NCBI GenBank assembly: GCA_963969365.1
Contig: OZ017752.1
Coordinates: 1,302,001-1,366,000, forward strand
From: Asterochloris sp. CNOR1
Lineage: Eukaryota; Chlorophyta; Trebouxiophyceae; Trebouxiales; Trebouxiaceae
Length of the DNA stretch: 64,000 bases
Direction: 5' to 3'
The position numbers and the translations under genes are program-made. Positions 1,639-36,500 of the stretch are shown here, piece after piece; the stretch's first letter is position 1, and the number at the start of each line of letters is the position of its first letter. The notes beneath the pieces are model-generated. The model saw nothing but the letters and a program-made list of their open reading frames with translations. It was not told the DNA's origin and did no database searches.

Positions 1639-6044
<4,406 letters not shown>

Positions 6045-6315: not shown

Positions 6316-9300
6316 ATGGCCTCTGTGGTTTGGCTAGAAAACAGTGTGGAAAGTGAGTCTTGCATGCAGCCCATCTCTTAGTTCCATGCCGTGAAGCTGC
6401 CTGTGGGTGCCATCTGCAGCCCCCCAGAGCTATGTCGTGGCTGTTGCTTGGCTAGGTTATTCCCGCATTTCTGCAGCTGACCCAGCTCATGCCCATACCT
6501 CTCACAATGTCCCATATGTGTGCAGGCACAGCAGGTCTACCCCCAGAGCTGCAGCGCACGCTAGAAACCATCAGGGATCTGGATGATCGAGCCCAAAGTA
6601 TGTTGCACAAAGCTCGCCTTCAAACTCATGTGCCATCTGTGTCTAGACCTGGACTTCGTGCCTGCAGCGCTGGCTGAGAGGATCCATCGCCAGGTGGAGA
6701 CCTGCCTAGGCCCCAAACTTGGGGACGGAGAGGCAAGCCCCACGCTTCTGCATGTGCCTCTCTGCATGAGCGGCTGCAGAGCACTGCTGCAAACTGTAGC
6801 AGTCAAGCAAGGCAGCGAGCCTGATTACACAGCTATGCAATGTCCAGTCCCGCTGTTACCAACTGCCTGCTGCGGAGCCTGCACTGCCTGCATCCGATGT
6901 GCTGCCAGCCTGTTGTGTTATTTGGCACTGCTGGCGGTGTCACTATCCTTCTGCCTGGCTGAGTGACCGCGGGCACAGATGTCCATCAGGTCGCCTGTGA
7001 CCAGGCAAATGTGTTGTGCCACCTGCAGGCTCCCCATTTTGGAGGCCTCCAAATCTCCATTTGTTGGCAGACAGGCCATTTGCCGTTGACATGCACTGCA
7101 GGGCCCTTGCAGGTGGCTGCTTCCCTGCCAAGCTGATGGCAGGAAGTTGGCCAGCCATGAGCTCTGGCGGGCAAGGGGCTGCCCCTGCAGCGCGCTCTTG
7201 TGCCTTTTGACTGTCGCTCCTTGCGCCTTACAGCCTTCCAGCTCCACAGCGCCGTCTAAGCAGTGCCTGGCTACTTGCTGGGACGCTGCCCATGCTGCGC
7301 CTGATAACTGCATAGACTTGTGGTGCACTCCCTGACCGCCAGGACACCTTCATGCAGGTGTTCAAGCTGTGCCAGTAACCATTTCAGCTGTTCCTGCTCC
7401 CTGGCCATGATTGCCAGGGGCGCAGCCCACTGAGCTATGACCTCGTAGCATTGTGAAGTAAGAGACCTCGCTGCTGTTCCTGCAGGTGGCCAAGCTGCGG
7501 CGGGCCATAGAGGAGGACCAGCGCCTGCTGATGCACTGGGCAGAGGAGAAGGTGGCTCTGGCCAACAGCCTGGTCAGCCTGCTACAGTTGCATTCTGCCC
7601 AGTCCGCGCGCGATCTGGCGGGGCTGGAGGCAGAGCTGCAGGTAGGGGTCTTCACTGCCAATGCTTTTCACTTCAGCCAGACATGAAGCCCCGTGATGCA
7701 GAGTCCTCACCGTTGCGCTTCTGCCTGGTCCCATCAGAATGCCGACTGGCAAGGGTGGTGACACAGCTGCAAGCGAGATGCTTCGGGGCTGAGGTTGCAG
7801 GTGGAGCAGCGTCCAGGGGGAGGGGTGCAGCATGTGCCTGATGATGCACATACTGCAGGCCTGAGCTGCCCTGCTGTGCAGGCAGAGGCGGCAGCTGAGG
7901 GTGAGATGGTGGAGTACATGTCCTCTGAGGAGATGAAGCGCTACCGCCTGCAGGAGCTGGAGAGGGAGCGCCAGGACAAGGTGGGTGCCACGGTTGATGT
8001 AACCCGTATGCAACGTGCCCGTTGTGGCCCTGTGCTTCCAGCATCAGCGCACCCGCCTCAGACGTCTGACAGGGAGCACCAGGACAGGGTGGGGACGGCA
8101 CCCATGTTCAGAGATCCCTGGCCGGCATCCATCATAAGCAATGTTTCACAAAGTGCTTGCTGCCGGACACAGCGACACTGCCTCGGCACCACTTGCTGCC
8201 TGGACAAGGAGAGCTGTGATAGTAGTGGGCGCGATGGTGGATCTCACTCAATTGTCGTAGGCATTGCTGACTCTTGCAAGCTGGACCCCAGGCTCATGCA
8301 GTCTGTTTTGGCAGATGCTACGCTAGTGCTGTGGCTGGGAGGTCAAAGTGGTGCACTGTGCTCCAGGTGGAGGCGGCAGGGGAGGACTGCTTCCAGCACC
8401 AGGACTTGCATGCACAGCCTGGCTCACACTGTACTGTACTTCCACTCAAACTGCCAGCACTGCTCTGCATGCTGCTGTTCACATACCTCACATCCTGCTG
8501 CAGCCACACCCATGGCTTTGCTGTCCAGGCCTCCAGTGACCACCCCAAGCGCACCCCCTGCAGCAGGCCAAGCAGCTGCATGGGGCACGCTGCTGGCGCT
8601 GCCCTAGACATTTCTTTGTGATTTCAGACCAAGCCGCTCTGTCTAACCTAGTCCGCTTGCGCCACAAGTCTTGGGGGCAGCTTGGCTGCACGTCAGTACG
8701 TTCGCGCCCTGACTTTCTGCTGATCTGAAGGGGGAAGGTCCTGCTTGAGGTTGACGAGCACCATTCTCTCACACTGCGCCTCCCTGCATGATGCAGGAAG
8801 CCAAGCGGCGGCAGAGGGAGCTGGCGCAGGTGGAGCAGCAGCGGCTGGCGGCCCAGCAGCCGCCCCCCAGCATGGAACCCCTGCAGCTGCAGCTCGCGCT
8901 GACGCTGCCCAATGGCCACACAGCCACCAGCGAACAGCAGGCGCAGGAGCAGGGGCCAGCAGCGGCGCCGGCGCGCGCTGCATCGCCTGCCCCCCAGCCC
9001 ATGCAGGAGCCAGGTGGGGCACTGCGGTTTGGCTTACATGACGGCACATGATGGCACGATGAAAGGCTTTGCACAGTGCCCCATGGCAACGGCGAAGCTT
9101 GTTGCTTCGCACAAGTGCAATCCTATTGGCTCATTTGTTTCTCATAAGGGCATTACAGTTGTGTTGATTCGGTTGGGACAGAGTCCAGCAGCGCCGCCCA
9201 ACCCCCACTCGCTGAGAACCCAGGTAGGCGCTGTGGTTTGCCTTGAAGCAGCCCTGCCCATGGCTGGGTGGAGGAGCAATTTGGAGTGTCCCAGCAGCAG

Positions 9301-12010
9301 TTCCCAGCTCAGCCTGCGGCGTAGCCAGATCTGGTGCCGTGGGTTGTCTCAGACTAGGCCTGGCCTTGTCGGCTGCACAGGAGGCGCCGAGACCATGTAG
9401 CCGACTGCATTGCGCCCATTAAGCACTCGTGCTCTGCCTACGCATCAAAGGTCCTCTGCTGGCTCTGCTGACGCAGACTGCTAGTGGCCCCATCCTGGAG
9501 GCTGTGTCTCTGCTGGCTGTGCGATGTGCACACATGTGTCGTGTTTGTGACAGGAAAGTGTGGGAAGAGTGGCCACTTGTAGCCAGCCATCAATGCCAGC
9601 AGCTTCCTGGCCTGGAGTAGTCTACTTCTATGACCTAACCGCAGCTCCTTGCCCTTACAGCTGCAGGCAGCCAGAATCCGAAGGAGGCTGCCCGCAGCCA
9701 AAGCCAAAGCGTGGGGCCCCCTCGCAGCGTCAGCGCAGCTGCTGTGGAGCAAACACCCACGCCAGCGGCCAGACCACAAGCACAGAAACGCAAGGCCCCT
9801 CCAGAGGGCAAGGAGGGTGAGCGGGCAACCAAGAAGGCAAAGGAGGAGGCCAAGTGCACGTCTGCAGCAGCTGCTACCGCAGCTGCCACTGCAGGCACGT
9901 GACTTGATCGCCTGCCTACATGCACCCCTCCAGGTTGTGCCCCTCTCTGTGTGCAGCATTTCACCTGGCTGCCACTGCTGAGATGCTCGGATGCCAGGCA
10001 CCATCACTGGCCAGAAGCGTCTCTGCAGCAGCTGCTGCTCCAGCCGCAGGTGCCTGGACTACCAGCCCATCCACATACAGCTCTCAAGGGTGTGGCCTCG
10101 CCTGTGCAGCAGGTCACATGGTGCTGCAGAGGTGAAGTGTGGTGCCTGGCACCGTCACAGGTCAACAGCAGGGTGCAGCAGCAATCGCTGGGTGCCTGAC
10201 TGTCTCAACGTGCAGCAGCCAGCCCATCCATGGACAACAGTCATGTTGAAGGGGCCAACGCTTAGGCTGCTGGCTTGATTCAGGCTCAGCACTGCTGGGT
10301 GATGGCGAAGCCACATGCAGTGAGGAGTTGGCCCATGCAGCATGCTGCAGAGCGCTCAAGGGCGTGGCAGCCCCCTCCCTGGCCATCAATGGCGTGAACA
10401 GCTGGGTCTGTCTGTACAGCAGAGCAGTCGCGGTGGCATCCTGTGCGTGACTCTGGCACAGGTTCTGCTGACAAGTGCCCGGGGCTGTGCACGCCTCACT
10501 TCCACAACCTCGGGGTGTTGTGGAGTCTGCAGTGTGTGTGCCACTGCCAGCCCTCATGAGGGGCATGTCTTCCCCACTGTGCAGCCCCACTCCTGGCTGC
10601 ACCCCCAGCAGGAGCGTGAGGCTGCTACCCCCTTGGCCATAGACACGTTTGCCTCCCACACCCTTACGCATACGCTGAGCCGCAGACCATGCTGCATGGG
10701 GGTTGCACGCGTCTGTGCTGCCTGCAGCTGCGCCTGTGTGGGGGATGAAGACGGCCATGCCGGCCCCCTTGTCAGACCCCAGCCTGCGCCCATGCAGCTT
10801 GCCCCGGGGGGCATGCGTGTCCACAGTATACTTGCTGCCGGCGGCTGTGCGCATGTGCCAGGCACTTGCAGCAGCGCTGCTCCCCAGCCTGGGAGCCTGC
10901 CGGCTGTCATGCACGTCTCAGGGTGCACATGCCCCCTGCAGCTGCGCCCGAGCAGGAGGCCAAGCCAGCAACATCCTCCCCACCCCCAGAACCCCAGCCT
11001 GCGCCCACGCCGGCAGTCGAGACCCAGCCGCCCCCTGAGGAGCCTGCAGGCTCCAGCCTGGACATGCCCATGCCGGAGTGGGCTCCGCCAGGCATGTCAC
11101 ATGCGGGTGACTTTCCCAAGGTCAGCCGAGTGCAGCCACCTGCAGGTCCGTCCAGGCCAGAGTGTGCTCCGCCTGGCATATCAAATGTCGGTAATCCGCC
11201 ATTGTCAGCTGACTCTGCGGGGTCGTGCTGCTGCCCACTGTCAAAGACCTTGACGCAGGTCTGTCCATGCCAGAGTAGGCTCCATGTGGCACCCAGCATG
11301 TGGGCGTGCCCTGTCAGGTTTGGCCGGCTCTGGGGCAAGCATCACAGGATGGGAGCTCTGCTTTGGCACCCAGCCGCTTGGTTGTGCAGACCGGACAGGC
11401 TGCAAGGTCCTGCATCTGCAGCCTCTGCATCGAGGCTCCCTGTGTGTTCTCTGCCAACCCATTTGTGACATGCCACCACCCCTGACTTGTGCTTGGCTGC
11501 AAATTGGACGGTGGCAGCAATGCACACACCGACTCTTTCAACGAAGCCCACAGGACCCATCTTCTGGATGGTGTGGCGCTGCTTCAAAAGAGCCAAACCC
11601 TCTGGCTGGGCTGCAGATGAGAGGGTACAGCTGAGATGTCTCAAGGCGCTGCTGTACATTTGAAAGCTGCATCTCATGCAAAGCTGCAACTGAGGTTGTC
11701 TCAAGCATCACAGCTGCTTGTCACACAGAGCTGCATGCGCCATAGTGGAGAACTGCATGGAGGTGCCCCATGGTTGCAGGCCAACGGGCGGCTACTCACC
11801 TACCAGGACATCAATGAAAAGCTCAAGCACCGGCGGGCAGAGCTGTTCTGGCCAGCTGACAACTCCTGGTACCTGATCATGATCGACGATGTAGACCTGG
11901 AGAACAAAGAGGCTGGCATCATCTACAGCACTGGGGAGACAGAGTCCCTCAAGCTGGAGGACATAGTCAAGGAGGGGCACATGAGCCTCATCAATGATGC
12001 CAAGCCCTGA
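6316..12010 (+). CDS. ING-family (inhibitor of growth) protein with C-terminal Tudor-like domain
   Basis: Exon 1 (6316-6352) and exon 2 (6526-6597) join as MASVVWLENSVES-TAGLPPELQRTLETIRDLDDRAQ, the start of an ING N-terminal domain. Next come 6668-6732, 7486-7641 (a coiled coil with EEKVALANSLVSLLQLH) and 7882-7980 and 8797-9013. All phases agree. Exon 9667 to about 9897 encodes a lysine-rich nuclear signal (KRKAPPEGKEGERATKKAK). Proline-rich exon(s) include about 10942-11119. The last exon (11780-12010) ends ...NDAKP and reads AELFWPADNSWYLIMIDDVD, a Tudor-like beta barrel. ING proteins normally end in an H3K4me3-reading PHD finger inside histone acetyltransferase or deacetylase complexes. 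I find no Cys/His PHD pattern here. Exons between 9.0 and 11.7 kb are uncertain, so the Tudor exon could belong to a separate small gene; a continuous model is preferred because no stop, start or gap separates them clearly. Confidence 0.7.
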
Positions 12011-12627
12011 CGGTGGCACAGCTGAACAACACTGTGAACCCATCTGACATCTCCCCCTCTACGTGACACAGCTGACTGATTCTGTGATCACCTGAAGTGT
12101 GGTTCACACACCAAAATTTACAGTGTGAAGACAGAATCAGGGTTTGCAAGGTTTATTGCAGCACCATTTTGGGGCTGCTGTGCGCTGCCTGCGCTCTGTC
12201 GGGGCTCTTCACTTCTTAGCTGCCTCAATAAGACTAGCAGGTCTCCATAGACGGCCATGCAGGCAAGGTGAACATGGACATGGAACTGGCATGCGAGCCC
12301 TTGACCACCAGAGCTATGCCGACACGTGAGCTATTGCTTTGCTCACTAACCACTTCATTGTTGCAACCACCCGCAGTGTAATTTGCAGAGGATGTCCACG
12401 CGACATCTTGCAGTAATCTCTGACGCAAATGTCCATCGAACCAGCATGCACCTAACCTGGAGGAACTGATGCTTGCAGTCCTAGGCTGACATCAATCGGC
12501 AGTGCGGAACCAGCACGCAGCAGCGTCAGTGCTGATGGGGTACACCCATGGGGGCTTGTGGCCCTCAGATCAGGGCCTGCAGGGAGTCAGGGCTCACCAT
12601 GACCCAGCCATCCTCTCCAAGCCGGCA
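12011..12627. other. Intergenic region between ING-like and DZIP1-like genes
   Basis: About 600 bases holding the 3' end of the ING-like gene and the promoter of the DZIP1-like gene, which run in the same direction. I see no conserved coding exon. The frame of DZIP1 exon 1 is open upstream to 12502 but has no conserved residues there. Confidence 0.5.
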
Positions 12628-15600
12628 ATGCCGCAGAGAGGCTTCCGCTTTGATGCCCGGAGGACCCGCATTGACTGGCGGGCGCTGCACGGCGTGGACA
12701 TAAACAAGCTGGTGAGCAGGCCTTCACAGGCCACCACAACGTTTCCACTGCGTTGGGAGGGCATGCGGCAAAGCTGGTTGAAGCTCAGAGGTGCATGTCC
12801 CGCCAACTGCTTGTGAGCAGGCACTCAGCTTGCAGAATGCTTTCCGCGAGCATTCATTGCCCCGATCAGCAGTTGACCAAGCCTGCTGCATGCCTGCTGC
12901 AAATCTGTGTGTCTGCAAGTCCAGGACATCATTGTTGACACTGCTTCCATGCTTGGCCCACACCACAGCAGCCCTCCAAAGCTGCAGCCCCTTCAGATAA
13001 TGAAGTCTGTCACACCAGCAACCAGCCAGCCCCTATACAGGAAGTTTCGTGGCGGCAAGGGTGCCCCAGCCACAGCAACAGGCTTGAGGTGTATTCAGCA
13101 CCCCATCTGTCCGAACCCCCACAAAGGCAAGCCTGCAGGTGTGGGAGACAGACACCCACACTCTGCAGATTGTGCTGGGCATGGTGGCATCGCACAGCAT
13201 TCAGCGCTTGGGTCAGCATGCCTGCAGGTCGGGAGACAGAGTTTGGCGCTGCTACCTGACACCATGAGCTTCAGTAACGCAGAGACCCTGGCACCAGCAG
13301 CCATCCATAATGGGTCCCCACAAGCAGTTAGTTTATGCGCCTGCAGGTGCGCGAGACAGACATCAACACGCTGGAGAAGGTCGTGGGCATCGTGGCCTTT
13401 GGGGATATTGAAGCGGAGGAGGCCCGCAACCTGACCGAGCTCAACTTCACGCGCATGCTGCGCCTGAGCCAGCTGGCCACCGAGTATCTGCTGCATGTGC
13501 AGGACCAGCTGGCCTATGACAATGGGCGCCTCAAGGTGCGGCTGCGGCTGCTGGGCAGCTCTCATGCCGGGGTTGCCTGGTATGCAGCTGCAGGCTTGAG
13601 CAAGACAGGGTTCCTCGGGTGCAGCTGCGCGTGTGTCGGTGCTGCCTGGCACCTGGGCATGCTGGGATGCCTGCTGCACGTGCTGGACCAGCTGGCCCTT
13701 GACACTGGGTGCCTCAAGGTGCGACTGCGGCTGCGGCTGCGGCTACGGCTGCGGCTGCTGTGCAGCAATCATGCTGGGGTCGCCTGCTGAGCGGGTGTAG
13801 GCTTGAGCGTGAAGGGCGCCCCCAAGGTGCGCCTGCGCCTGTCATGGACCGCCTCGCTGCCTGCCAGGGGCACTCGCAGTGCAGCAGCTGCACACCATGT
13901 GCAGGACAGGCTGACAGCAAGCGCCTGAAGTCGTACCCCTGGCTGCCCCTGGGCTGCGTGGCTGGCGGACCTGACCTCATTCCTGAGCAAAGTATGGCAT
14001 GCAGCACGCACTCATCGTGCTGCCTGGCAGCCGTGTATGCGCCATGGCAGCTCTGGCTCTTTGATGCAACACAGCACCTAAGTCGCCAGCGAGAGGCGGA
14101 ACTAAACACAATTGGTGGTGGTGCCTGGACGTCGCTCGCCTGGGCCTTGTCAGGTGGCAGGCAAGCTGTTCTGCAGCGGTGCCTGCAGGATGAGGCTGTT
14201 CGGGGCCAGCAGCATGTGGAGGGGCTGCAGCTGCGGGTGTCTGAGCAGAAGCAGCTGTTGGCGCAGCACCGCAAGGAAGGGCGCCGCATGAAAAAGACGC
14301 TGGCCACTTATGAGGTGGGCCCAGCAGCACGAAACCAGTGCACAGGCGTGGCCTTGCTGTACTGGCCTGGCCAATGCTACATCATCTTACCTCCTTGTTT
14401 GTGAAGCGTGGTCTGCATCAGCCAGGTGCAGGGTGCAGTGGTGGGTGCCCAGATCGCGCTGCACACCGCAGGGCATCTTCTGCAAGTGCCAGCGCTCAGG
14501 AAGATTGTAGAAGTCCAAAAGGAGCTGTCATGAGATCAGGCAGCCCCCTGGCGTGCAGGCGGTGGTGCCCTGCATCGCCTGCCCTTGCTCCAGGACTGCT
14601 TCGCGCAACGCAGCACTTGGCCTCAAGCCCCCAGCTCCTGCAGGTGCTGGCACAGGCTGCCCGCCAGCAGCAGGAGCAGCAGGCCAAGCAGCAGCCCCCA
14701 CAGGCGCCGGCCGCATCACCAGCTGTCCCCCCTGCACAGACGCAGACAATGTTGCGCACTCAGGAGCCTGATCCGGTGCTGCTGTACAAGCTTGAGCGTG
14801 TAGAGAGGCAGGTGGGGCCCAGCACGGCAGTTGAAGCACTCAGGTGCATGTTGCAGCAGCACATGCCTTGCCATGTGAGAAGGAGCGCCAGCTGCACCAG
14901 GGCTTGCAGGAGGGGCCCTGCCTGCCAGGTCACGCTGGAGCGTTCCTGCCTGCAGGCTCACGACCTGCGAGAAGAAAGGGAGGGTCTGATGAGGGACGTG
15001 GCCAAGCTGAGAACCGCTCTGCAGGAGGTGTCTGCTGCAGGCAAAGGTGCAGCCCTTGGTTGCATGCTGCCCTTGGCCGTTGTGGGTTGAGCGCCCCTGA
15101 GGGGCATGATGGGGCCAGGCTTTGCACCTGGCAGCCTACGGCTGTGGGAGAGTGGCTGCTGCGGGGAGAGGTGGTCCCCAGCTGTGCCTCCTGCCCATTT
15201 GTGATGGTTGGGAAGGGGCTGCTGCAGGGTCAGATGGGGCCCAGCCAGGCAACTGGCAGTCTCGAGCCCAGCCATCTGTCTTGAGCCCAGCTTCGCCTGT
15301 GATCGTGGGTTATGGGCCGCTTCAGTACAAGACGTGCCCAACGCCTTGCAGCCGCAGACTTTTGGCCGAGCTTGGCCAGTTGGGCCCTGCTGCCAGACCC
15401 AGCCCTGAGGCTGATACACTCGCGAAGCTTCACAATGCTCCTCAGCAAAGCTTCCTTCTGGGTGCTGCTGCCTGAGGCCTCAACATCTGACCTGTTCTGC
15501 CTGCGGACTGCTGGCCCCCAGTCTGGGCACCAGTGCAGGGAGTTGTGGGCAGGAAGTGGCAGCCAAGGTGGCAAGCAGCCACCCAAGGGCTGGTGACTGC

Positions 15601-18600
15601 TGTGTGCACCATTGCTGGTGAGTGCCTGCAGGGCCCAGTGAGCAGGAACTGGCAGCCCAAGGGACTGCTGTGTGCACCGTTGCTGGTGAATGCCTGCAGG
15701 GCCCAGTGAGCAGGAGTTGGCAGCCCAGGTGCAGTCTGCCCGGCAGGAGGAGCGTGCCGCTGCTGAGCAGCGCTTTGCAACTCGTCTGGAGCAGGAGAGG
15801 GCTCGCATGCCCGTCCAGGACAGGTGGGCTGTGCACACGAGGAGTCTGCGGGCACTTGGGGTGGGTTGCATGTGCCAGCCTTCGCCTGCCTTGTCTGCGT
15901 GATGCATCTGCCTCTGCTGGGCATGGACAGCATGCAGAAGCAGGTTGGACCATGTTGCACGTGCTGCTGACGCATGCCTTTCTGTGCTGGCGATGCTGCA
16001 GGACCAATGTCAGCCTTTCAGCAGAGTCAGGACAGGCCCGAGCGCTGCGGCTGAAGCTTGATGAGGCGCTGGCAATGTAGGGCAAGCAGTGCAGGCAGAG
16101 TTCCGATGGGGTCATGCAAACTGCTTACGAAGTGTACCCCCCAGCATTTGCCATGCAGCATGTGCTGCAGCTACAGCAGGCCGCTGCACAAGTCTTACGT
16201 GTATGCTTCCTGCAAGACAGCTTCCTTTGCCTGCAAGCTGCCAGTGCCCCTGCAGCGCGGCGCGGCTGCATGCATAGTGCCTCATGTGCACACCTGCTGC
16301 TTCTCACATGGACAGCAAATGATGTGGCAATGGGTGGCTAGATGGGGTCAAACACTGTAGCACTTTCCTAGCAGATAGCAGGCCCTGGCTCGCCACAGAA
16401 ACGCTGCTCCAGCTCCACACTGTACCGGCAGCTGCTGCAACATTGCCAGCACAGCTGAAGCCCCGTGGAGGCAGCCTGCCTGTGTCACACCTCTCGAGCG
16501 GTTGACCAGAACACCGCTTCCATGCAGGCAGCGTGCCCTGGCCCGCCAAAAGGATGCTGCAGAGGTGGAGCTGCTGCACCTCAAGAAAACCCTGCCCAGA
16601 TTCCCCCTTGCGCGGGGGCAGTCAGGCATGAGCTCCCAGCGGGAGCAGCAGCTCGCGCGGGACTTGAGGGATGCCGAGGAGGAGATTGCCTCTCTGCGGC
16701 GCAAGCTGCAGCAGCAGGTGGGTGTCTTCTGTGCGGTTGTGGAGCAAGCAAACGGCACAGCATGTGTGGTGCTGCCTGCGCATGACATCCTACAGCCAAC
16801 ACCAGAAGCAAAGACTGTATCTGCGCTGCGACCGTCTGTGCAGCATCACATACCGTCAAGTACATGGTCAGGGTGGCAGTGGTTGTGCAAGCTGCCGGGG
16901 GGATGTCTCAGCACCAGGTAGCAGCACTCACATGGCTGCGCCTAGACTTGCATGGTTGCCTGCTGCATGAAGCCCTCAGCTCAAGTCAGTGTGCGGCGTC
17001 AAGCTGTGCCCTGCCTGCTGCAGGAGCGGGAGCTGGCACAGGTCGGCAGCAGGGGCAGCGCTGGCCGTGCCACTGCAGAGGGCAGTGCTGCAGCCCATGA
17101 GGTGAGCCTGCGGCAGGCTGCTCTGAGCAGGTCGAGTGATGTTCCTCACACTATGCCTCAGCATGGGCTTGGAGCTGGCACTGCAAGTCTTGCTCCAGCA
17201 ACAGCAGCAGGATCCTTTAAGTTTCCGCTGTTACGTATATGGAGACTGCAAACCACCTCAGAGCCTGCATGCTGAGTGTACCTGCTGGTGCTGGTCACCT
17301 GCTGTACTGCCTTTGTGCACCCCTTGCTCTGCAACACCCACTGTGCTGGGTGTGTACCGCTGGCTGCCCCCGCAGGTCCACACCCTTCGGGCTGAGTTGG
17401 ATGCTGTGAATGACGACCGCTTGCGGCTGCGCGGAGACTTAGCTGAAGTCAAGGAGCAGGTGAGGGGCCTGCCCTTGCGCCCCATGATGTCCAGCACCTA
17501 CCACGGTATCGGTGCTGCATTGTAAACTAGTGTCTGTGTGAGGCGGTCTGGTGCAGAACAGATACAAACAAGTCGATCAGAGGATGGGGGCTTGGCAAAA
17601 GGCTCGTTAGGCTTCAACAAAGCCATTCCCCATTGTGCCTGCAAGACCTGGCCTGCAGCAGACCACTTCAGGCCACTGCTGTCTGACAAGGTCCCTAGGC
17701 CAGGCTGAGCTGTGCTGGACCCCCCTGATGCAGCCTGTGCTGGCGTCACGGTGGGGTCCAGCAACTGCTGCAGTTGGTGACCCAAATGCTGGAGCTGATG
17801 CCCCACAAATGCATAACTTCACTTGGCAGCTGATCCCTCTCTGGCTGCTTGTGCTGAGCTGAGCTGATAGACTTGGATATGCTGTGAGTGCCAGCCTGCA
17901 TGAGCAATGTTGCTCTGCAGATACGCGCTGCAGCATGCTAAGTGCCCAAGCTGTGCCTCATATGATCTCATCAGCAAAAATTCTAATCTTTTCCCTGCAG
18001 ATGCATGACCTAGAGCTGCAGCTGCGCCGGTCCCAGCTGGACAGGGGCAACAGCGTGGCAGAGAGTGTTGTGGGGAGGGACTTAAGGACACAAGAACTGG
18101 CGCAATTGAGGCAGGAGGTGAGTGCATGACGCATGCCGCTCAACTCCGGTGCTGCTGTGGAGCGCCTATAGCAGGGCAGGGCTCTGCCTGCCGGGGCTTC
18201 CTTTGCAGGCAGCAAGAGGCAGTGCTGAAGCCTCCCTAGCAGTTGCACAAAGCGGGTCATGAGTGCATGACACCTCAAGCTGCTGGACTGAATCATTTGG
18301 GAGTACAGAGTCCACAGGTCTGCTGGAAGGTGGAGCACAATCAGCACATCACTCCAGTGAAGCATGCCCAGACCGGTGACAGTAGTGCCCTCTTAAATAG
18401 TCGCAACATAGCCGTTGCCAGTACCATGGAAGCCTGGTGGCTAACAGACCAGAATGAGTATGGCTGTGTTACATTACTGCAGGTGGCTGCTCTGGAGGCG
18501 GAAAATGCGCGCCTGACCAGACGCAATCAGCCTGAAGCTTCACGGCATCAGGTGCGTGGCCATCTCACGGAGGCTGTACTGCTGCTACTGCGAGATGTCT

Positions 18601-21600
18601 GCCTGCTGTGTGGCTCTTCAACAATCACTGCAGAGCAAGCTGAGATGCATGTGGCCCAGAACTGCTGTGCTGTTGGCCTCATGGGTCCAGGACGCCATGC
18701 TGATGAGCACTGTGGACGCAGCAACGCTTATAATCAGCTGACAAAAGGGCTGCCTGCAGGAGGCCCCAGCGTCTGAACCTGCAGCAGCAGGGGACAGGAC
18801 AGCTGTGCAGGAGCTGCCAGGGCCCTCGCAGAGCGAGCAGAGCCCTGCCCGCCCCCAGCGGCCCAGCCCTCAAGACGCACACCTGTCACCCCAAGCGCAG
18901 GTGCGTGCCGTTGGGGTTGAAAATATGTTTGACAGAACCTCTGCCCCTGGCAGTGCACCTGCGTTGCAGCTGGCAGTAGATGAGTCAGACCATGGCCCGG
19001 GGGTGCAGGCACGTCTTCAACAGGGTGCCTGTGAGCAGGCAGCGTGTCTCTTTTGCCTGTACACTGCAGCAGCTCTGCAGCTTGCAGGCTTTGCCACAAG
19101 TTGGGTTTGCAGAGGCTGCACATTGGCAGAATTTGCAATGCCTGTGCTTGACATGATCATGCTGCCTGTCCTGTCAGGGACCCCGCCATCAAGGCAGCGC
19201 CCTCACTGGATCGCTGGAGACTGCCTCGTCTGTGATGCTGCCTGCTGTTATGCTGATGCCCACCCTGCTGCCTTCTTTCCAAGGGATCCGCGTCCACTGC
19301 AGCGCTGCCCAATCAGAGGTGGTGAGTGCCTGTTGCCTGTGGTGCTGACAGCTTCCCTGCTGCCTGCTCGGCCAGGACCCCCACCACCGCGGCAGTGGTG
19401 CCTTCCCAGAGCCGGTGGGGCGCACCAGCTCCACAGTCATGCACGTGGAGTTCCACCCGCGCCTCAGCGCAGCCCCCGGCCCGATGGAGGCCGCTGCCCT
19501 GGAGATGCCGCTGGCTGAGGAGGTGTCCCAGTTCAAGGATGAGGTGGGCTGTCGGGTGGCATCTGCAGGCAGTCACCTGCAAGCCTCTGTCCCTAGCAGA
19601 GGCATTTTGACACCCGTCTGAAGCGCCCCACAGTGAAGGGCCAGCGCTGCGCTGCCCTGCCTGCAGGAGACCGCTTATGGGAGTGAGGCGGGCAGTCCCT
19701 CACGAGCGCAGTCCCCGGAGGTTGCAGCAGGGGGCCGGCAGGGGAGCCCCTCACCCCAGGTGGAGCGCAGCGGCGCGGCCTGGCAGGACCACCCCCGCAG
19801 CGCTGCTGCCAGCGCTTCGGACCTGCCCCAGCAGCGCAGTCAGCGGGAGCTTGAACAGGTACGCACTCCTGGCGCTGTGCTGGCCTCGTGGCTTTCAGGG
19901 CAATCTTCGCGTCAGGGTAGACCTGCCGTGCCGTGCAGTCAGCGCTACCTTGAGAAGGGCAGCACTCTCAGTGGAATGAAAGGCATGCCTGGACACGCAT
20001 GGACAACTAAACCATTGTGCTGCAAACGTTTCAGGGTCAGAAACGTGCAGCCGATGTGGCCTGGCCAGGGCATAACACCGGGCAGACGTCTGCACTGGTC
20101 CCTTGCAGGGAATCTAAGCTCAGGTGGCAACCGCCAAGATGGCCCACCAGCACTTGCGCAGCAGAGGCGGCCTGGCGCTCATAAGAGGCCCCACCACGGT
20201 TGTCAGCATCCCCTTTGTGGTCAGGACTGCCATCCTCAGTGGCCAGCTTGAAGCTGGATGTCGGTGCCCTGTAGGAGTATCAGGCTCAAGCGCAAGCAGC
20301 ACGGAAAGCCGCCCGCACCCGTGCCGCTGAGGCAGCCAGCCGTGCGAATGAGACCCCCATGCCCACTGCCGCCGGGCAGCGCCGCTTCCGCCAGGAGATG
20401 CCCGCCCTGTTGAACGACCACGAGCGCCCGGGGCTTGTGTCACGCTTCACGCACACAGGGCCCGAATTTGTGGAGACAAGGGGGGACGTCGAGGTGGGAA
20501 ACCAAAGTCTTTCACTCTTCTGTCTGCCCAGTACCCTGGGGTGGTGGGGGCGGCATGTCTCCTTCATCCTGCGTGGTGAAGGTGGGTGAAAATGAGACAA
20601 GCAATACACCTCCACCTCCCCAGTGGTATGCATACACTCAGGCCTCGAGTGCTACAACACCAGCAAGGTCAGCTTTGCTACACCACTGGCACCAATGCTG
20701 TCTTGCCTGTTGTACATCAGCAGTTGAATGACCGTCTTGCCCACCCCACCTCAGCAACATATGAGATGAGGACTAACAGTGAAATCGCATTGCAGGTAGC
20801 TTGGCAGGCAGACCAGCAGCAAGCATGACTTTGCCTCCTGCCCCTCTTTGGGAGTGACCTCTGGGAGTGCACAGAATCTGAGGGAATACTGCAGTGCAGC
20901 TTGCCCCCCATGCCGTGCTGCTCTCACAATGACTTGCCTGCCTGCTGCACGTCAAGCTGGGAGCTCCAGCTTATTCTTCTGTGGCAAAGCTGGTCTCTCG
21001 GTTGCAGTGCAGTCTCTCTTCAAGCCCTAAGTACATGTGGTTGCTGCAGGGCAGGCTGGCTGCTGAGCCCCAAGAATTGTAAAGGTGGCTGGCCTGTTTG
21101 GCAGCCTTCCTATCGAGCAGGATGCACAGTTGCTTATCTGCTGCAGGCTGACCTGGGAGCCATCACGCTGCATGCAGCTCAGCGGGCGTCCACTAATGCA
21201 GCTTCTTGCAGGGTCTTTGTGCCAGACAAGTTTACCTGCCTCTCTCAGCGCAAGCTGGATGCTCAACTTCAGAGGCGTGCAACTGCAGCCCACCCCGTGG
21301 TACTCTTGACTGCTGCAAGCAGTAGGTTCTAAAGCCACACAAGGGCAGCGGCAAGCAGGAGGCAGGCACCAAGACAGCTGACGTTCCAATTGCCTTCGGC
21401 TGCAGGGGGAGCTGGATGCAGAGCTGGCCCGGGAGCTGCAGTCCTACAACATCGACCCCCTGGCCGAGGGCATGACTGATGTGCAGTACGCCGATGCCAT
21501 GGCTGAGCTGAAGAGGCGGCGTGAAGCCGCGCTGATGGGAAAGAGCAGGGCGGAGCTGGCACGGGTGGACCACATGAGGACCACCCTCATGTGGCACATC

Positions 21601-24600
21601 CAGCATGTGAGCAGTGGCCCTGATGCATGGGCAGCTCACAACCCACTCCAATGCCTTCTGGCTCTGATCAGGGGGTGCTCTCACGCAAAGTTTGGAGACC
21701 TTGTAAATGGGCAGCAGGGGCACCAAAGGCAAGTCATGCCCCATTCACATGCGACAGATGACATGCAGCGGCAGCGGCGCTCGTTGCTGGGAGCCGAGGT
21801 GTCGGGGCTTGTGATAGCACTGGCCACAAAGAAGAACCAGCATACAGCGGCAGCACCACCCATACTTGGGCTGCTGGTAGCAGACGGCACTGAGATGAGC
21901 CTCAAGCACACAGGCAACAACTGCAATGAATGCCTGCCTGCAGGTGGCGAATAACCGGGCGCGACCTGAAGCTCATGCACATGGGCAGCAGCAGCAAGAG
22001 TCACTGCCTATAGGTGCCGGCTGGCAATGCAGCAGCAGTGGCTTAGAATCTCAGGACTGAGGCTCAAGCACAGCTTCAGCATCCGACATGGATGCCCTGC
22101 AGGTGGCAGACGACATGCAGCGGCAGCGGCGACTGCTGCCCTCCGGGCGGGCAGCGGCTGCTCCGATCGAGCGGGACCAGCCCCTGCCCCGCCAGCCGCC
22201 GCCACCTGCAGAGCTCCGCACCCTCAAGTCCCCGCGCCTGAGGTGAGGTGCAGCCCAGTTTCTGGCAGGTCTTTGGGCGCATTGACTGCAGGCTGCTGCC
22301 CCAGCTGTTCACGAATGCTAGACAGGGTCATACATTGGTCTCTGCTGAGCTTTGTGCCCCCTCAGTGACAATGCTGTGCAAAGCTGAATCTGGCTGATGA
22401 ACTGCACTGCTGCATGCCTGGCTGGAGCCTCTGACGCCTGCATCTGTTGAGGTGCACATCAGCCAGGCTCCACTGTCTGACTGCAGCAACGAGGGTGAGG
22501 GTGAAGCAGACAGGCCACGAATGAGGCTCGGTGCAGAGACCTGGCGCCCAGAAGCCAGTGCTGCCCCCAGCAGCAGCCTGGGCTACACGCGCCGCTATGC
22601 ACCACGCAGCAATGAAGCCTCTGAGGCAAGGAGGGCGGCAGGTGGGCAACACAGTCACAGTGCTCCACCAGAGATGGCCCCTGTGCCAATGAAACTGTTG
22701 TGGCCTGAGCAAGATGTCCGCTGCACGCTTCTTCACTCCTGTGCAGCGTCAAGACTGATGCTCCATGGTGCCTTCGGCCAGGCAGCAGCAACCTCACAGG
22801 TCTTGGGCTGCGCAGCGTCTGACAGGTGCGCAGCATCTGACGGGGTGCATGCGAGGGATGGCTGCAGGTACCGGCGAGCCCCAGACCCGGAGTCAGCCCC
22901 CAGCGGAGGTGCCTGCCAGCAGCCAGGGGCGCCAGGAGCAGCGGCTGTGGAGCAGGCCGGCTGTCGAGGGGGACAGCACCAGCTACACCAATGGAGCCTT
23001 TGAGGGGGCAGCGTCCTCCTCTGCCGGTGGGCCGTGCAGCAGTGCCGCGCAGCAGTGTCGCTCACACCTGATGTGGGGGGTCCCAGATACTTGGTGCCTG
23101 CAGCAATGCCACTGATTTGTTGCATCTGCCCCAGCCAGGGGGTGCAGGCAGCAGGCCCTCATAAGGTATGTGGGTCATTACTACCCCCCACCCCCCCTCC
23201 CCCTCCAACCCCTCCCCCTCCCACATGCAGCGCCATGCAGCTGTTGTCAGCCGCTGGCAGTCCGACTGTCTGCCATAGGGGTTGCCGCTGAAGGGCAGGC
23301 GTAGTGGCAGTGTTCAGCTCAGGCTCAGATGGCTGAAGCTCTGCAGGGACCACCAGTGCCTCAGCTGACCTGCAAACTGCTGTGCCCATTCCTGCTCCTG
23401 CCCTGCACTGCAGCTGGGACCCGAGCGCTGGTACCGCCCACTCCAGTGCCCACCCCCGTGTCGCAGCCTGCACTTGCTGCGGTCTTCCAGCCCAGCCGCA
23501 GCACTGAGTACCGGCCCAGCCGCCTGAGGCCCATGGATGCAGGGACAGCCAGGGCAGCACCCAGCAGCAGGTGAGGCAATGTGTTAGCAGTGTAAGGCTG
23601 CCTGAAGCGACAGCAGCAGCTTTGAGCCTGGGTCAGCGTAAGGCCTGTGGATGCTGGCTATGTCACAGCAGCTGGCCAGCATCGCCCCACCTCACGACCC
23701 TGAACTCAGCTGCGGCATGCCCAGCAGGTGAGGGGTGGGCTCTTGGTGCAATGGCTGCCTGAGGCCTTAAGCTACCATGAGCCCTGCTCTCTCAGCAGCC
23801 GTCAAACAAGCAGCAATCTTGCGCAGTCGTGCTGTGCAGGATCTTGCCAGGCGTGGTTCAGATGTTACAGTGCTATGTCATCAACTCATGCATGAACTGC
23901 AGCCACACACACGTATCCAGGGGTCTGCACGCTGATCAGCGAGTGTGTGTGCAGGCTGTCGCTGCCCAGCCTGCCGGAGGCAGAATCCGGACAGCTGGGT
24001 CCCCCCTCAGCAGGTGCTGCCTCTGCTCAGGCTGGGACACCACCCAGCCCCCTGAGCACCACTGCCAGCCCAATGGCGGCAGCAGGAGCCAGTGCAGCCA
24101 CAGGGGAGCCTGAGGGCCGCACAGCACCTGAGCACAGCACGGCTGCAGCCTCAGCGCAGGCCGCTGCCCAGGTGAAACCTGCAGGCGTCACTTGTACCCC
24201 CGTCACATGCACTGTAGTGACAGGCTGGAGGGTTGGCATGTCTTGGGGCAGCAAGGGGTCATGTCTGCATGATATGCAGGCCACCCTGTCCTGTGCTGAC
24301 CAGGCTGTCATCATCATCTGCGAGGATGTGAGGCAGGCACGTTAGTTTTCATTACTATCAGTTAGTCCGTTGGGGGCCTTCATGACATTTCACATGCGAG
24401 TGTCGCCCCAATGACGCATCCCAGGACGCTCAGCTGTCTCAAAGGTGACATGACTGCATTGCGCCGCAGGAGGTAGAGGAGGAGCTTTATGAAGACGACT
24501 TTGACAGCGCGATTCCAGATCTGGACGCAGCTGCCAGAGAGCAGGGAACCTCAACAGGGCAGCCGCAGACCACACAGCCCAGCAGCGGCCAGCCATTAGG

Positions 24601-24701: not shown

Positions 24702-24859
24702 TGCTTCCTGGCCAGTAAAGCTTCACACGGTCAATTCCACTGAACGCTTTCTCGCTCGTGCCATCTAGCAAGGCCATGTGCATGCCTGTCCCCTACATAC
24801 TTTCATGGATGGACCCGCAGTCATCATACACAAGCCCCCGCATGCACAACCTAAGACAA

Positions 24860-26061: not shown

Positions 26062-26099
26062 ATGCCCCAGGTTTATTGGAATGCCCCAGGTTTACTGGA
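26062..26099 (+). repeat. 19-base tandem pair upstream of carA
   Basis: ATGCCCCAGGTTTATTGGA is followed directly by a copy with one change (TTTACT for TTTATT). The pair ends 10 bases before the proposed carA start codon, so it lies in the likely 5' leader or promoter. Confidence 0.9.
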
Positions 26100-26109
26100 A
26101 TTGGGAAGC

Positions 26110-30512: not shown

Positions 30513-33500
30513 TCATGTCTCCTCTGGTGTCTCTTTAATAAACTCCAAGCTATTGTGAGAGGCTTCCGCAGGTCCTGTGCCAGCATCTGGCGACAGGTCC
30601 TGTAGCCTTACTTTCCAATGGGCCTTGGACATGGTCTTCTGCCGCATGCCTGCATGTGCAAGCCCAGGCTCAACAACTGACCTTGAGTGACAAGTGACCG
30701 GCAGCAAGCAGGTGGTGGTGGACAGACAAGAAGGCAAGCAGCAGCTCACCTGTGGACCAGGCCTGTGGGGCGCCAGCAGGTTTCTCAGTGGAAGGCCCGC
30801 CCATGGATGCCTTCTGGCGTGTCTGCTGCAGCTGCCCAGACACGATGCGTTTGAAGCTGTGCTCCAGCATGTGCTTGCCCATGGGCGTTGCAGCCTGCAA
30901 CCGGCCAGAGTGGAAGATCAGGCACAGGTCACCGAGCTCCCAGACCAGAGACACATGGATGTTGCGCAGCCTCACTGGACCTGCAAGCTGCCGCCACTCT
31001 CCAGCCACGGCGAGGAATGTCAGACCAGTCACAAAATTTCCAGAGACCTTTCCCTGCTTGGCAGACCACACGGCAGCTGTGGCGGCTGGACTTACCTGAC
31101 AGGGTGTTGAACTGGCAGTCGTGAGCCTCTTGTACTTCCTCTGCTTGTCACGCCTGACAGGACACGCACCTGGCTGCCAGGCACCTGCTCCTGCCTGCTG
31201 AGCTCCTCTGCGCCGTAGATCAGGGGGCCGCACCCCAGCCGCTGGCACTGCCTGAAGAAGGTGTGCTCCTCCAGGCCCACGCACTTGCGCATGAAGGTGA
31301 ACAGGGGCAGCAGGAAGGGTGCGGGTTGCTTGTTCAACCCACTCCGGGTGGCAAAGGAGCTCACGTCCTCCAGCAGTTGCAGCACCAGGGAGGGACGCAG
31401 CACGCTGCCCATCTCCAGGAGCCGCTTGGTCTGCAGCAGGCAGGGCCACAAGCTAGCACAGCAGGGCAACATGCAGCATCACAGATGCAGACATGTGCAC
31501 GCTGCCCGTCTCCAGGGGCAGCCTGGTCTGCAGCAGGCGGGACTACGAGCCAGGCACCGTGCAGCGTCGCAAAGTTCGGCGGGGTGCATACTGCCTGTCT
31601 GGTCAGGTTACCCCACTGCAAGACAGGCGGCTAAAGATAGGCTGCTGGTGAAGCCCTACACCTGGAGCTACACATGGCTGCCATGTCTGTGAGGCCACCA
31701 CGCTCTCCAACCAGCCGAGATCTTGCCTGTGCTTACTTGCTCACGCCGCAGGGGTCACTCCAAGGTTGCCAGGGGTGATTGCTTTCGACCAAGACATCTG
31801 CAGCCTCTCTGCTCTGGATGTAACATGCGTGCAGGACCAGCCCAACTGCAAGCCAGGCAGCCCAGTGCAGCCCTGCCTCCTAGGCTGACCTCCTCAACCA
31901 GCACCAGGCTGAGGGTGTCCACGGCCTTCATGCTCATGACCAGGCGGCACAGGCTGTCGTAGAAGTTGGAGATGACTTTAACCTCAATCTTGTCCGCCTG
32001 GGTTAGCTCCACAGCCGGCATCTCGGCAGCAATGGCCGCCATGCGGCTTTCGATGAGGGCCTCTGTCTGAGCCAGAAGGCCCTCAGGCTCCTCCCCTGCA
32101 GCAAGACAGGCACCAGCTATGCTCAGTGCAGCCGCTTTCTCGAACAAGCCGAAGGGGTTGTGGTGCTAAGCACCAGCCTGGGCGGCTTCCTGCTTCAGGG
32201 CAGATCTGTTGTAGGCAGATCCGCTGCCAGAGATCAGCATGCCGCAGGCAGGGCGGCGGTCGACACCATTTTTGGAGGCCAGACAGGACATCCATGCATT
32301 GCATGCACCCAGCAGCTCAAGCAGCCCAATCTCTCATGCCTCCAGCCCCCAAGATGCACCCCTGCAGTAGTGCAGGTGCTACTCAAGGTGCCAACAGAGG
32401 AGTTTGAATCTGAGCACAGATCAGCAACAGCCTGGGCTGCTGTATGTCCTTAGCACACCCCCTTGCAGAGCACGGCAACCAGGCCATGGCAGTAGCCAGC
32501 ACCATGCTTGAATGCCACTTGCAGCAGCCACAGATGCCTGTGCATCCAGCAGCCTGAGCAGCCTCGCCTCTCATGCCTCAGGCATCAGAGACGTGCCCAG
32601 GTCTCTGAAGCACTTGCAACACAATCAGCCTCCTGGCAGTGATTCACTGCTTTCTGGAAGTTGGACACAGAAACACGGACAGCATTGCTCAACCTCATGG
32701 CAAGCTCTGCTGCCCAAATGAAGGGGTAAGGCAGTCATGGTTGGCCTCAGGTTGGGGCAACACTAGCGCCCTCCGTGCACCTCCATCACGAACCACACCT
32801 CATGCACTACAGAAGTCCCAAGCAGTGGCATACCAGGGCGGGACTGTGCCCGTGAGGCGCGCCCCTTGCTGGCCTGCAGGTCCCGTAGCACCAACTCGCA
32901 GAACCCCGCAGCGTGGGGGGTGCTACTGCGCACGGCTTGCCGGCGCTGCGCCCGCTCCCACAGCGTGTGCTGCAGGTGGTGACGCTGCCGCTGGCGCACA
33001 GCCACGAAGGCATCATGCCACCTGCACCAGGTGGGACGACAGTGGAGGCCAAACACATGCTCCAGAACAACACAATGGTGCAGGGTGGTTAGGAGAACCC
33101 TACTGCATGACAGCTAGCGCTCCAGGTCTGGCGCAGTACACCAAATGGACCGCCTGCGCTTCATCAAGTTGTGTCAATGCACTGACACATTGCGGTGCTG
33201 GCACGGGCGTGAAAGTGGACATCTGCAAAGCCACCCCATGCAGATGGTGCTGGTCATGCTCCAAGCGGTTCCCCATACTGACAGTTGACGCACCCTTTCA
33301 AGAAGTCGTCATCGGTGCCTTTCACCCTTGAGCAGGCTGCAAGCAACTCTGTGCAGAGGCCCAGAGAAGTATACAGCCACAGGCCCCAACTCACTGCCTC
33401 ACGGGATCATTCTCCTGCCCCAGCGCCGCTCTGCGATTGTGCACAAGGTCGGTAAAGTCCGGGGTTGGAGGCAGGGCAGCGTGCCTCGTCATCGCCTGGG

Positions 33501-36500
33501 TTGCCCCATAGCTGGTTCGCATGGTCCCTCCACCTACGGTGCCGGGCGTGGACTGGACATCACTGGAGCGCCGGCGTCCGGTCTGGTAGAGGCCGCCTGT
33601 CTGGAAGAGGACATGTGCCTCTGAGGCAGCTGTGGGCAGGCCACCCTGCACGGGTGAGAAGGCTGCATGTGAGGTTGCTGCAAGACCAAGGCCTGCTGCC
33701 TTTAAAGAGCCCAGGTCAGGCCACCCTCCAAACCCCTGTATGGGCAGGTAAACAAAGAAGCTGAGCAAGGCTGAACATACCGCAGGGTGCAAGTTGAGAC
33801 TCGCGGGGAGACTCTTGAGGTGGGCCTGGGCCACTGCCCTCGAGAGATGTCCAAAGGGGTTGCTCAACATGCCTTGCAAGGGCAGGCAGGGACTTGGAGT
33901 GAGCAGCACCCCATACGTCTACTTTTGGCTGCAAGGCTTCCTTGCTCATCTGCATTATGCAAGGGATGCAGCAGGCAAGGTGATGTCAGGCACACTGTGC
34001 ATGAGTAGTGAAGCACCCAGTGTGAGCACATTTGTCTGTGTGACAGGGTGCAGGTGTGTCTGCAGCAACCTGGGGGCACATCTTCCAGCCAGGCAGGCAG
34101 CTGCCGCTGCAAGCCCAACCTTGCCTCGACTGACGTCTTGGAGGGCCCAAAACAGGAACATACCTGTGTTATGGCCCTGGCCTCATCAGAGATGCTTTGT
34201 GCCACAGATGCCTGCTAGCTTGAGTGCCGCACCCCTGAGCAGGGCCAGCTGCCCGCCTACCCTCTGAGCCCTGCCCCAGCACCAGCCAGCACAGGCAGCC
34301 ACAGCAGGCGCCTGCCGCCTAATCAGACTGTCACAGTCTCACGGGAAGGGAGAGCAGGGACTGACCTGAGGGCTGGCCCCATCAGAGACGCTCTGTGCTG
34401 CAGACTCCTGCGCCAGCTCCCCTGGGAGGGGTGTTGACAAGGGGTGACTGCCTGGCTGGCCCCCGGAGCCTGCTCCCATGTCAGCCAGCACAGGGTGCAG
34501 GTCTGAGTCCAGGGTTGGCTGCAACAGGGTTGCACTGCTGCCGCCGGACGGCTGCAGCACGGCTGCAGAGCTGTGGACACGGCGGCTGGGGCCGGCAAAG
34601 GCCTTCGCTGTGGGGGTTGCATGAGCTGACTCCCCAGACACGCTGAAGGAGGCTGCCAGTGCCGAGCGGCCGCTGCGGGGCCCGCGCTGCTTGGTCAGGC
34701 GTGCTGGGAGCAGCAGTGACTGGCCAACTGCACACAGCAGGTGGCAGCTACTTAGGCCAGAGATGACAGGCAGGACATGCTCATATAGAGGTGGAGCAAC
34801 ACCTGAGCCGATGTGCACAGATGTAGTCGAAGCTTTTGCAAGTGATCAAGTGGGCTGATTGCCGTGGCCCAACCTAAGTGTGGTGCAATCCTGGAAACCC
34901 AGAATTGCGTCTGGCATTGACTGGCGGCCCATTGCGCAGCTGCAGCTGTGTAGTCTACTCTGTTCGCAGCTCTGCCAGGCTACAGCAGCAATGCAAGCAA
35001 TAGGCATTTATTTCATGCATGATATGGCACTGAAGCCTTGTCGCACACACATCTGCTGCGGCAGAGGTCCATACCTCCAGCCAAACAACTTGAGCCATGC
35101 AGTGCTGAGTGGTCATCAACTGCTGCTGCAGTGAAGTGGCGCTTGAATCATGCTCTCTACAACATCAGTAGCTGCAAAGACCTCTGCTTGCTGTGATGCG
35201 GCGCCCATCCTCATTTGGAAGGTGCTCATCCCACTGCAGCGGATCCTCGGCATCTGTGTTGGCAGCATCCGCGCTCATAAAGCCTCTGCCTGTCCTCCGC
35301 GACAACTGAGCGCGCTCCTCAGCCATTTGCAACACCTGCCGCGGGAAGCTGCAGACAAAACGTATAACGAATATGAGCTGGAAGCTGGAGGGAGCACATC
35401 GTGTGCCTGCAGGCGGGAAGACCAGGGAGCCTGAATAGCTCTGCCATGCGCAACACGTGCTGCTGGGAGCTGCAGTCAGTAGTCAGGTGGTTCTTCAGTC
35501 ATTGGGAGCTGCAAGCAGAAAGATCTGTGAGCTTGCAGCCTGCTGTAGGCTCTGTCATGTGCAGCCAGCACCTGCCACAGAAAGCTGCAGGCAGCAGGAT
35601 GGGAATGTCAGGAGGCTGCAATGGCTGAAGCAAGCAGTGAGCCTGAAAGCAGGAACTGTGGGACCCTGAAAGCTTGCTTGTGCAGCGTCTGCTGCCAAAA
35701 GCTGCAGGCGTGTGCTACAAGGGTGTTCAGTTGAGCCAGCACCCGCCATGCGAAGCTGCAGGCAGCAGGTGGGAATGACCAGGAGCCCAGAGGCTGTAAT
35801 GGGCTGCAGCAAGCACACTATGACTCAGGTGAGGAAAGGACAGGCAGCTTAAGCAACACTGCCACTGCATTGCCTCTCCTGACCATTCTGCTTGCAGCCG
35901 TCTAGGTTAGGTCAGGGATGTGTGAGACGCTGGAGCTTTCTGCTGGCGCACAGCATAGTATGTAGATGTCACTGGCATGCGTGTGGCGACCAAGTGCGCA
36001 GTATGCTTGGGGCAGGCACAGCAAGACGCCACAAAGCAAGGCAAGGGATAAGGGCTGCACGGATGCTGCAGAACGATGCATTTGGAATGCTGGTGAGGAC
36101 CGGCGCTTAGTTCTGCAACCCTAGAGCCTGAGTGCTGAGCACACCTCACCTGGCTTCCCGCCTGTCAGCATTGGTCAGCAGCACAGCTTTGCTCTGGCTC
36201 AGCATGGCTTTGGTCACCCGGTCCAGCGTGGCTGGATCAGTCTGCAGGTCCCTCCCATCACCTGCAGCGAGCGCAGCTCTGGTGCTGCCAAACATGTGTG
36301 CTGCAGACAGACATGACAAGCTGTGATGCAGGCAGGTAGAGCAGCCCGTGTGGCAGGGGACAGGCTTTCTGCAGAGCTGGCCAACAGCACTGCTGCACTC
36401 AGGCTGCCAAGAGCTCTGTGCGGCACGGGCACGACTGAGTGCTGAGTCCTGCAGAGCTGGCCCAAGTGCATGGAAACCATGCCTGCAGCCTTCTGAGCGC

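What the first reader, a model, noticed from the sequence alone, without database searches (positions are those of the whole stretch)
7963..35800. Introns repeatedly carry decayed copies of the adjoining exon edge and splice site
At eight or more places in four genes, an intron contains one to four diverged copies of the end or start of the exon next to it, always including the splice site. Examples are given as separate findings below. The direction is not random: copies lie in tandem next to the functional edge, and the functional copy keeps the frame. This suggests that introns in this genome grow, or even arise, by tandem duplication of exon-intron boundaries, with one boundary kept and the others left to decay. 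Intron creation by duplication of AGGT-bearing exon segments has been proposed in other eukaryotes; seeing it at many ages in one window is unusual.
Basis: partly seen in the sequence, partly recalled or inferred. Interest (0 to 1): 0.72.

Follow-up and report, generated by a model that had tools for sequence, protein, structure and literature searches.

The report
Exon-edge fossils inside growing introns
Many introns of this green-alga-like genome hold worn copies of the edge of the neighbouring exon; they look like what ordinary small tandem duplications leave behind when they happen to cross an exon-intron border, and a test for introns being born this way came out negative.

Summary
With a gene finder trained here on 264 kb, 23 of 211 donor edges and 24 of 211 acceptor edges have a significant direct copy in the adjoining intron (about 1 each expected); reversed and reverse-complement templates give 1, 2 and 0 of 211, and introns one or two away give 11 of 956. 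Composition is not the cause. The copies look like unconstrained relics: mismatches fall almost evenly on codon positions and GT or AG survives in 19 of 38. In three genes checked by homology (DZIP1, prolyl endopeptidase, Cpn60) the exon-proximal copy is the one in the protein. Local direct repeats also lie wholly within introns and in intergenic DNA, and border-crossing pairs are about as common as simulated position-blind duplication allows. So introns grow by tandem duplication, but border targeting is not needed. The signature of intron birth is absent: 0 of 211 reach the score threshold. No introner-like family was seen. Two loose ends: few young copies, and weaker intron-side homology than the simulations give.

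The parts
7937..7985 (+). functional donor edge (exon 7882-7980)
8046..8093 (+). diverged copy of that donor edge in the intron, GTGGG kept
11045..11126 (+). functional donor edge (exon 10942-11120)
11131..11209 (+). diverged copy of that donor edge, almost adjoining it
13339..13396 (+). functional acceptor edge of the DZIP1-like exon 13347-13535
   Evidence: Dzip-like_N, 117 residues on 117 profile positions, with a query that joins exon 12583-12711 to 13347
13131..13188 (+). copy of that acceptor edge, 81% identical, 208 bp upstream
13220..13250 (+). second, more decayed copy of the same acceptor edge
   Evidence: read by eye; start; not tested on its own
13488..13670 (+). unit with the functional donor at 13535 (48 exon nt + 135 intron nt)
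   Evidence: unit limits by inspection
13671..13853 (+). adjacent copy of that unit, donor GTGCG kept; lengthened by a CTGCGG run
   Evidence: unit limits by inspection
15595..15662 (+). copy of a 68-bp unit with an unused acceptor
15663..15730 (+). 68-bp unit with the functional acceptor (exon starts 15700)
19820..19866 (+). functional donor edge (exon 19667-19858)
19920..19965 (+). decayed copy; GT lost
22100..22131 (+). functional acceptor edge (exon 22103-22242)
21748..21779 (+). copy of that acceptor edge; AG lost
31378..31436 (-). functional acceptor edge (exon 31170-31430)
31472..31533 (-). copy of that acceptor edge, CTGCAG kept
34373..34411 (-). functional donor-side exon edge (exon 34366-34727)
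34177..34215 (-). copy of that edge; splice site not recognisable
35330..35356 (-). functional acceptor edge (exon 35182-35348)
35451..35763 (-). four diverged copies of that acceptor edge; start-to-start spacings of the series 121, 115, 117, 54 bp
4092..4138 (+). functional donor edge in a VPS4-like gene (outside the given range)
4181..4226 (+). copy of that donor edge

Best explanation
Small direct tandem duplications (mostly about 50-300 bp) arise at any position in this genome. One that lies inside an intron just lengthens it. One that crosses a donor or acceptor border gives two copies of exon edge plus splice site; if the exon-proximal site goes on being used the protein is unchanged, so the duplication can fix and the spare copy decays as intron. 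Because the exon copy is held by selection, only one of the two copies drifts, so these border fossils stay recognisable longer than intron-only duplications. Shown: excess, adjacency, direct orientation, decay without clear coding constraint, and exon-proximal use in three homology-checked genes. Inferred: the duplication step itself, its near-neutrality, and the reason for the exon-proximal choice.
For: Excess in the adjoining intron and in direct orientation only. Local repeats concentrate at offsets of 20-420 bp and nearly vanish at larger and far offsets. Head-to-tail units, limits by inspection: 13488-13853, 15595-15730, and at G000:C2:558768 a 106-bp unit of 78 exon plus 28 intron nt; a five-copy series at 35330-35763. 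Intron-only pairs are nearly as common as border pairs: 46 and 55 at score 18; pairs in predicted intergenic sequence 0.33 per kb (8 pairs) against 0.47 in introns (76). Coverage by repeats is 12-15% at exon edges, about 5-8% just inside the intron and about 8-15% further in, the shape I expect if each position is hit alike and exon copies do not drift. Codon positions 1, 2, 3 match at 520/671, 535/671 and 506/669. GT or AG kept in 19 of 38 against 0.51-0.67 in neutral simulations. Pfam and PDB alignments show no room for the copy in DZIP1, prolyl endopeptidase and Cpn60.
Against: Intron-side homology is weak: p<=0.05 in 10 of 38 and p<=0.01 in 7 of 38 against 0.49-0.68 and 0.43-0.56 in eight simulation settings. 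After matching exon identity, alignments that run over 20 nt into the intron are 9 of 47 observed against 9.9-23.2 in five settings, and those ending 0-8 nt past the border 14 against 7.6-10.7; no setting fits every bin. Young copies are few: identity >=0.88 in 5 of 38 border-reaching copies against 0.35-0.80 under even ages. No RNA data and no relative were available.
Confidence: 0.8

Rival explanations
1. Exon borders are a preferred target: a transcription- or splicing-coupled process copies the exon edge up to the splice site into the intron.
For: 14 of 47 alignments end 0-8 nt past the border, against 7.6-10.7 in five identity-matched settings; intron-side homology at p<=0.05 in only 10 of 38; border to intron-only ratio 1.11-1.43 against 0.85-0.99 in even-age simulations.
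Against: Leaving out the youngest events brings the simulated ratio to 1.20-1.36 or above; identity matching narrows the end-point gap; the clearest young cases include 28-135 nt of intron in the unit.
Confidence: 0.1
2. Introns are born here by tandem duplication of AGGT-bearing exon segments, and the copies are remnants of that.
For: The mechanism is documented elsewhere (PMC3443670, PMC4974935, PMC2891723; passages). 5 of 211 introns score 10 or more in the register test against 1.3 expected.
Against: 0 of 211 score 12 or more (0.22 expected); the two gapped tests give 1 of 211 each with 0.8 expected.
Confidence: 0.04
3. The copies are live alternative exons or alternative splice sites.
For: Some copies keep an open frame and GT or AG; the finder called several copies exons, e.g. 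13139-13183, G000:C2:539752-539841 and G000:C1:589122-589169.
Against: Mismatches are nearly even over codon positions, with gaps in many alignments; splice dinucleotides are lost in 19 of 38; homologous proteins lack the three copies checked.
Confidence: 0.05
4. Chance or composition (CTGCAG-rich introns, splice consensus, simple repeats).
For: The acceptor consensus is CTGCAG|G and the sequence holds CTG-rich runs.
Against: Other introns of the same genome serve as the control; 23 and 24 of 211 against about 1. Enrichment does not fall with exon confidence: 12 of 77 and 15 of 74 for the best-scoring exons.
Confidence: 0.01

Closest known systems
Internal gene duplication (Gao and Lynch 2009; recalled, and cited in passages of PMC4974935; the paper itself is not held)
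   Same: Duplication inside genes that can include splice sites.
   Different: Here the outcome I could see is a longer intron and a decaying spare edge, not a new intron; such fossils occur at about 11% of tested edges in the 264-kb sample (47 of 422).
Potato RdRp intron (PMC4974935; passages seen)
   Same: The duplicated segment crosses an intron-exon border.
   Different: There the duplication made a new intron through a cryptic donor; the two candidates I followed up here turned out to be relics.
Tandem genomic duplication model of intron gain, Rogers 1989 (via passages of PMC3443670 and PMC4974935)
   Same: Tandem duplication supplies an extra splice site.
   Different: That model needs a repeat spaced by the intron length; not found in 211 introns.
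Introners / introner-like elements (PMC4457414, seen in a search listing only)
   Same: Introns shaped by copied sequence.
   Different: No two of 211 different introns match at E<=1e-4.

Membership tests
Tandem duplication across an exon-intron border | direct orientation, in the adjoining intron only | tested here: met
Tandem duplication across an exon-intron border | copies head to tail, unit length equal to offset | tested here: inconclusive
   seen in the clearest cases (13488-13853, 15595-15730, G000:C2:558768, by inspection); older copies are too decayed; some fairly similar ones (G000:C2:598212, G000:C1:596061) show no intron half
Tandem duplication across an exon-intron border | absent in a relative without the event | not testable with these tools
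   no relatives held
[quoted passage not shown]
   0 of 211 at score 12 or more; 5 at 10 or more against 1.3 expected
Introners | near-identical introns at unrelated sites | tested here: not met
   0 pairs among 211 introns; the rest of the genome was not compared intron by intron
Tandem exon duplication / mutually exclusive exons | copy keeps reading frame under coding constraint | tested here: not met
   codon positions, pooled over 47 copies; for three genes
Tandem exon duplication / mutually exclusive exons | copy present in transcripts | not testable with these tools
   no RNA data

The most novel reading that the evidence does not exclude
Exon edges are copied into introns preferentially by a process tied to splicing or transcription that stops near the splice site, making these algal introns a running record of it and a standing supply of second splice sites from which alternative exons or introns can start.
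Probability: 0.1. Interest if true: 0.75.

Novelty: new member of a known kind. Interest (0 to 1): 0.4.

Why it matters
Exon-anchored fossils make intron growth measurable: the exon side dates each event and shows whether duplicating a splice site is tolerated. Here border-crossing duplications appear about as freely as intron-only ones, which suggests that they are close to neutral when the exon-proximal site stays in use. That bears on how introns lengthen and on how often raw material for new introns or alternative exons arises. A rough hand estimate from simulated detection rates (0.12-0.36) and 47 hits at 422 edges is about 0.3-0.9 border-crossing events per exon edge per neutral substitution per site; it rests on the simulation's assumptions.

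Tried and rejected
Composition or chance: rejected by the other-intron control. Introners or dispersed repeats: not seen in the sample; six genome searches with edge regions listed only the query's own locus, plus its local copy; this search is weak for diverged copies, since it did not list even the known local ones. Intron birth: register and gapped tests negative. Functional splice sites in the copies: retention 10 of 18 GT and 9 of 20 AG fits neutral decay. Exon-exon repeat pairs as candidate intron births or exon duplications: of these I followed up the prolyl endopeptidase and Cpn60 cases, which look like relics, and looked at a 54-bp array and an acyl-CoA-synthetase-like case without settling them. 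Failed or superseded work: crashed, collapsed to no genes, over-called tiny exons; one search is the version used. The first simulations made deletions too rare; redo them and are the ones I rely on. The 'observed' line printed at the end was typed by hand and holds two slightly wrong values (mean identity 0.79 and share 0.16; one search gives 0.808 and 5 of 38). Genes are still merged in the models, which affects intergenic estimates and the gene count. Rows dropped: 255 of 466 predicted introns were left out of the main test for weak or short flanking exons or length outside 60-1500 bp. In one search, introns over 1200 bp were set apart.
Full report
Setting. The window is G000:C7:1302001-1366000 of a 56.4-Mb, 21-contig genome, GC 58% in the sample. 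Size, GC and intron load fit the lichen alga Asterochloris glomerata (56 Mb, GC 56-62% in 98% of the genome, 9 introns per gene; PMC6652019, passages); that identity is inference. No relative and no RNA data were available. I fetched two further 100-kb stretches, C1 and C2 from base 500001; 'C1 n' and 'C2 n' below mean base n + 500000 on those contigs.

Gene models. A self-trained HMM gene finder gave 502 exons and 466 introns in 264 kb, donor CAG|GTGAGC and acceptor CTGCAG|G, median intron 298 bp. It merges neighbouring genes and sometimes calls a decayed copy an exon, so counts of copies are probably lower bounds. Of the 466 introns, 211 have well-scored flanking exons and lengths of 60-1500 bp; the other 255 were left out.

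Is it more than chance? The last or first 80 nt (or less, in short exons) of each flanking exon was aligned to its own intron and to 400 equal-length pieces made from other introns. p<=0.005 in 23 of 211 donor edges and 24 of 211 acceptor edges, about 1 expected each; reversed donor edges 1 of 211, reverse complements 2 and 0 of 211. Introns one or two away in the same gene: 11 of 956 at p<=0.0067, about 6.4 expected. With the best-scoring exons only, 12 of 77 and 15 of 74.

What the copies look like. Distances between functional and copied border run 51-295 bp for donors and 68-577 bp for acceptors; 38 of 47 copies reach within 8 nt of the border. Mean identity of the exon part is 0.81 over a mean of 40.5 aligned bases. 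Matches by codon position 1, 2, 3 are 520/671, 535/671 and 506/669, so there is little sign of coding constraint. The splice dinucleotide is kept in 10 of 18 donor and 9 of 20 acceptor copies. The exon-proximal copy is the one in the protein: Pfam Dzip-like_N aligns 117 residues to 117 positions across 12711|13347 and 13535|14189, and prolyl endopeptidase and Cpn60 chains in the PDB align without a counterpart of the copies at C2 39752-39841 and C1 89122-89169. The three queries were built without the copies; the alignments show no gap where they would go.

What makes them. Ungapped direct repeats (score 18) at offsets 20-219 number 30, 48 and 98 in window, C1 and C2, against 1, 1 and 0 at offsets 20000-20199. 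In the 211 exon-intron-exon units 55 pairs join exon edge and intron, about 1.2 expected from swapped introns, and 46 pairs lie wholly in introns. Predicted intergenic sequence has 0.33 pairs per kb against 0.47 in introns (8 and 76 pairs; only 24 kb intergenic). Repeat coverage is 12-15% at exon edges, about 5-8% just inside the intron and about 8-15% further in; deeper in exons it is 3-9%. A position-blind process should give this shape, because border-crossing units are seen for longer (the exon copy does not drift) while positions just inside the intron can only be in one of the two copies; that argument is mine and not computed. The clearest units are head to tail by inspection: 13488-13670/13671-13853, 15595-15662/15663-15730, C2 58768 (106 bp = 78 exon + 28 intron). 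A series at 35330-35763 has spacings 121, 115, 117 and 54.

Test against simulation. Neutral, position-blind duplications give border to intron-only ratios of 0.85-0.99 with even ages (four settings); leaving out events younger than 0.12 substitutions per site gives 1.20-1.36 at indel rate 0.1 and 1.56-2.70 at 0.3. Observed: 71:64, 55:46 and 43:30, or 1.11, 1.20 and 1.43. So border targeting is not needed, though a modest preference is not excluded. Two results fit less well. Intron-side homology is found at p<=0.05 in 10 of 38 and p<=0.01 in 7 of 38 against 0.49-0.68 and 0.43-0.56 in eight settings. With exon identity matched, the four end-point bins (short of the border / 0-8 / 9-20 / over 20 nt into the intron) are 14/14/10/9 observed; the five settings give 8.4/7.7/7.7/23.2, 10.3/10.7/9.5/16.5, 21.1/7.6/7.3/11.0, 20.3/8.3/8.5/9.9 and 8.2/9.7/8.5/20.5. 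Young copies are scarce: 5 of 38 at identity 0.88 or more against 0.35-0.80; intron-only pairs show the same, 0.13 against 0.33-0.72 under even ages. Faster intron turnover, a slow-down of duplication, or hiding of young copies by the gene finder could each contribute; I cannot separate them.

Intron birth. If a duplicated AGGT segment had made an intron, donor and acceptor junctions would match in register at an offset equal to intron length. 0 of 211 score 12 or more (0.22 expected), 5 score 10 or more (1.3 expected); the gapped versions give 1 of 211 each, 0.8 expected. The model itself is documented elsewhere (PMC3443670, PMC2891723, PMC4974935; passages). No two of the 211 introns resemble each other at E<=1e-4, so introners are not a likely cause.

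Literature check. Eight completed searches of an open-licence library listed no survey of decayed exon-edge copies inside introns; I saw listings and, for four papers, passages. Most subscription journals are missing and Gao and Lynch 2009 is not held, so this is weak evidence of novelty.

Verdict. A real pattern, present in all three stretches examined, whose best reading is ordinary: random small tandem duplications, made visible at exon borders by one-sided decay.

Noticed in passing
L020:1168-1361 (G000:C2:571168-571361): Four tandem copies of a 54-bp unit, up to 97% identical, each with CTGCAG and an in-frame continuation, at the start of a predicted exon: a young acceptor-edge array whose used acceptor is unclear.
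   Followed up: partly
L022:6742-6865 (G000:C2:596742-596865): 62-bp tandem duplication, 94% identical, at a predicted exon and its downstream flank.
   Followed up: no
L013:1335-1503 (G000:C2:501335-501503): A minus-strand exon that reads like an acyl-CoA synthetase (by eye, not searched) has a 75% identical copy 121 bp upstream of it in the gene, partly called an exon.
   Followed up: no
window 13719-13770: A CTGCGG run has expanded inside the duplicated donor copy; the repeat offset goes from 183 to 207 bp across it.
   Followed up: no
window 12583-24694: A DZIP1-like gene (Pfam Dzip-like_N), a family linked to cilia (recalled), carries six of the 12 edge hits in the range.
   Followed up: partly
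window 50667-50866: 200 bases read N.
   Followed up: no
whole 264-kb sample: Local duplications at least 88% identical are scarcer than even ages would give, in introns as well as at borders.
   Followed up: partly
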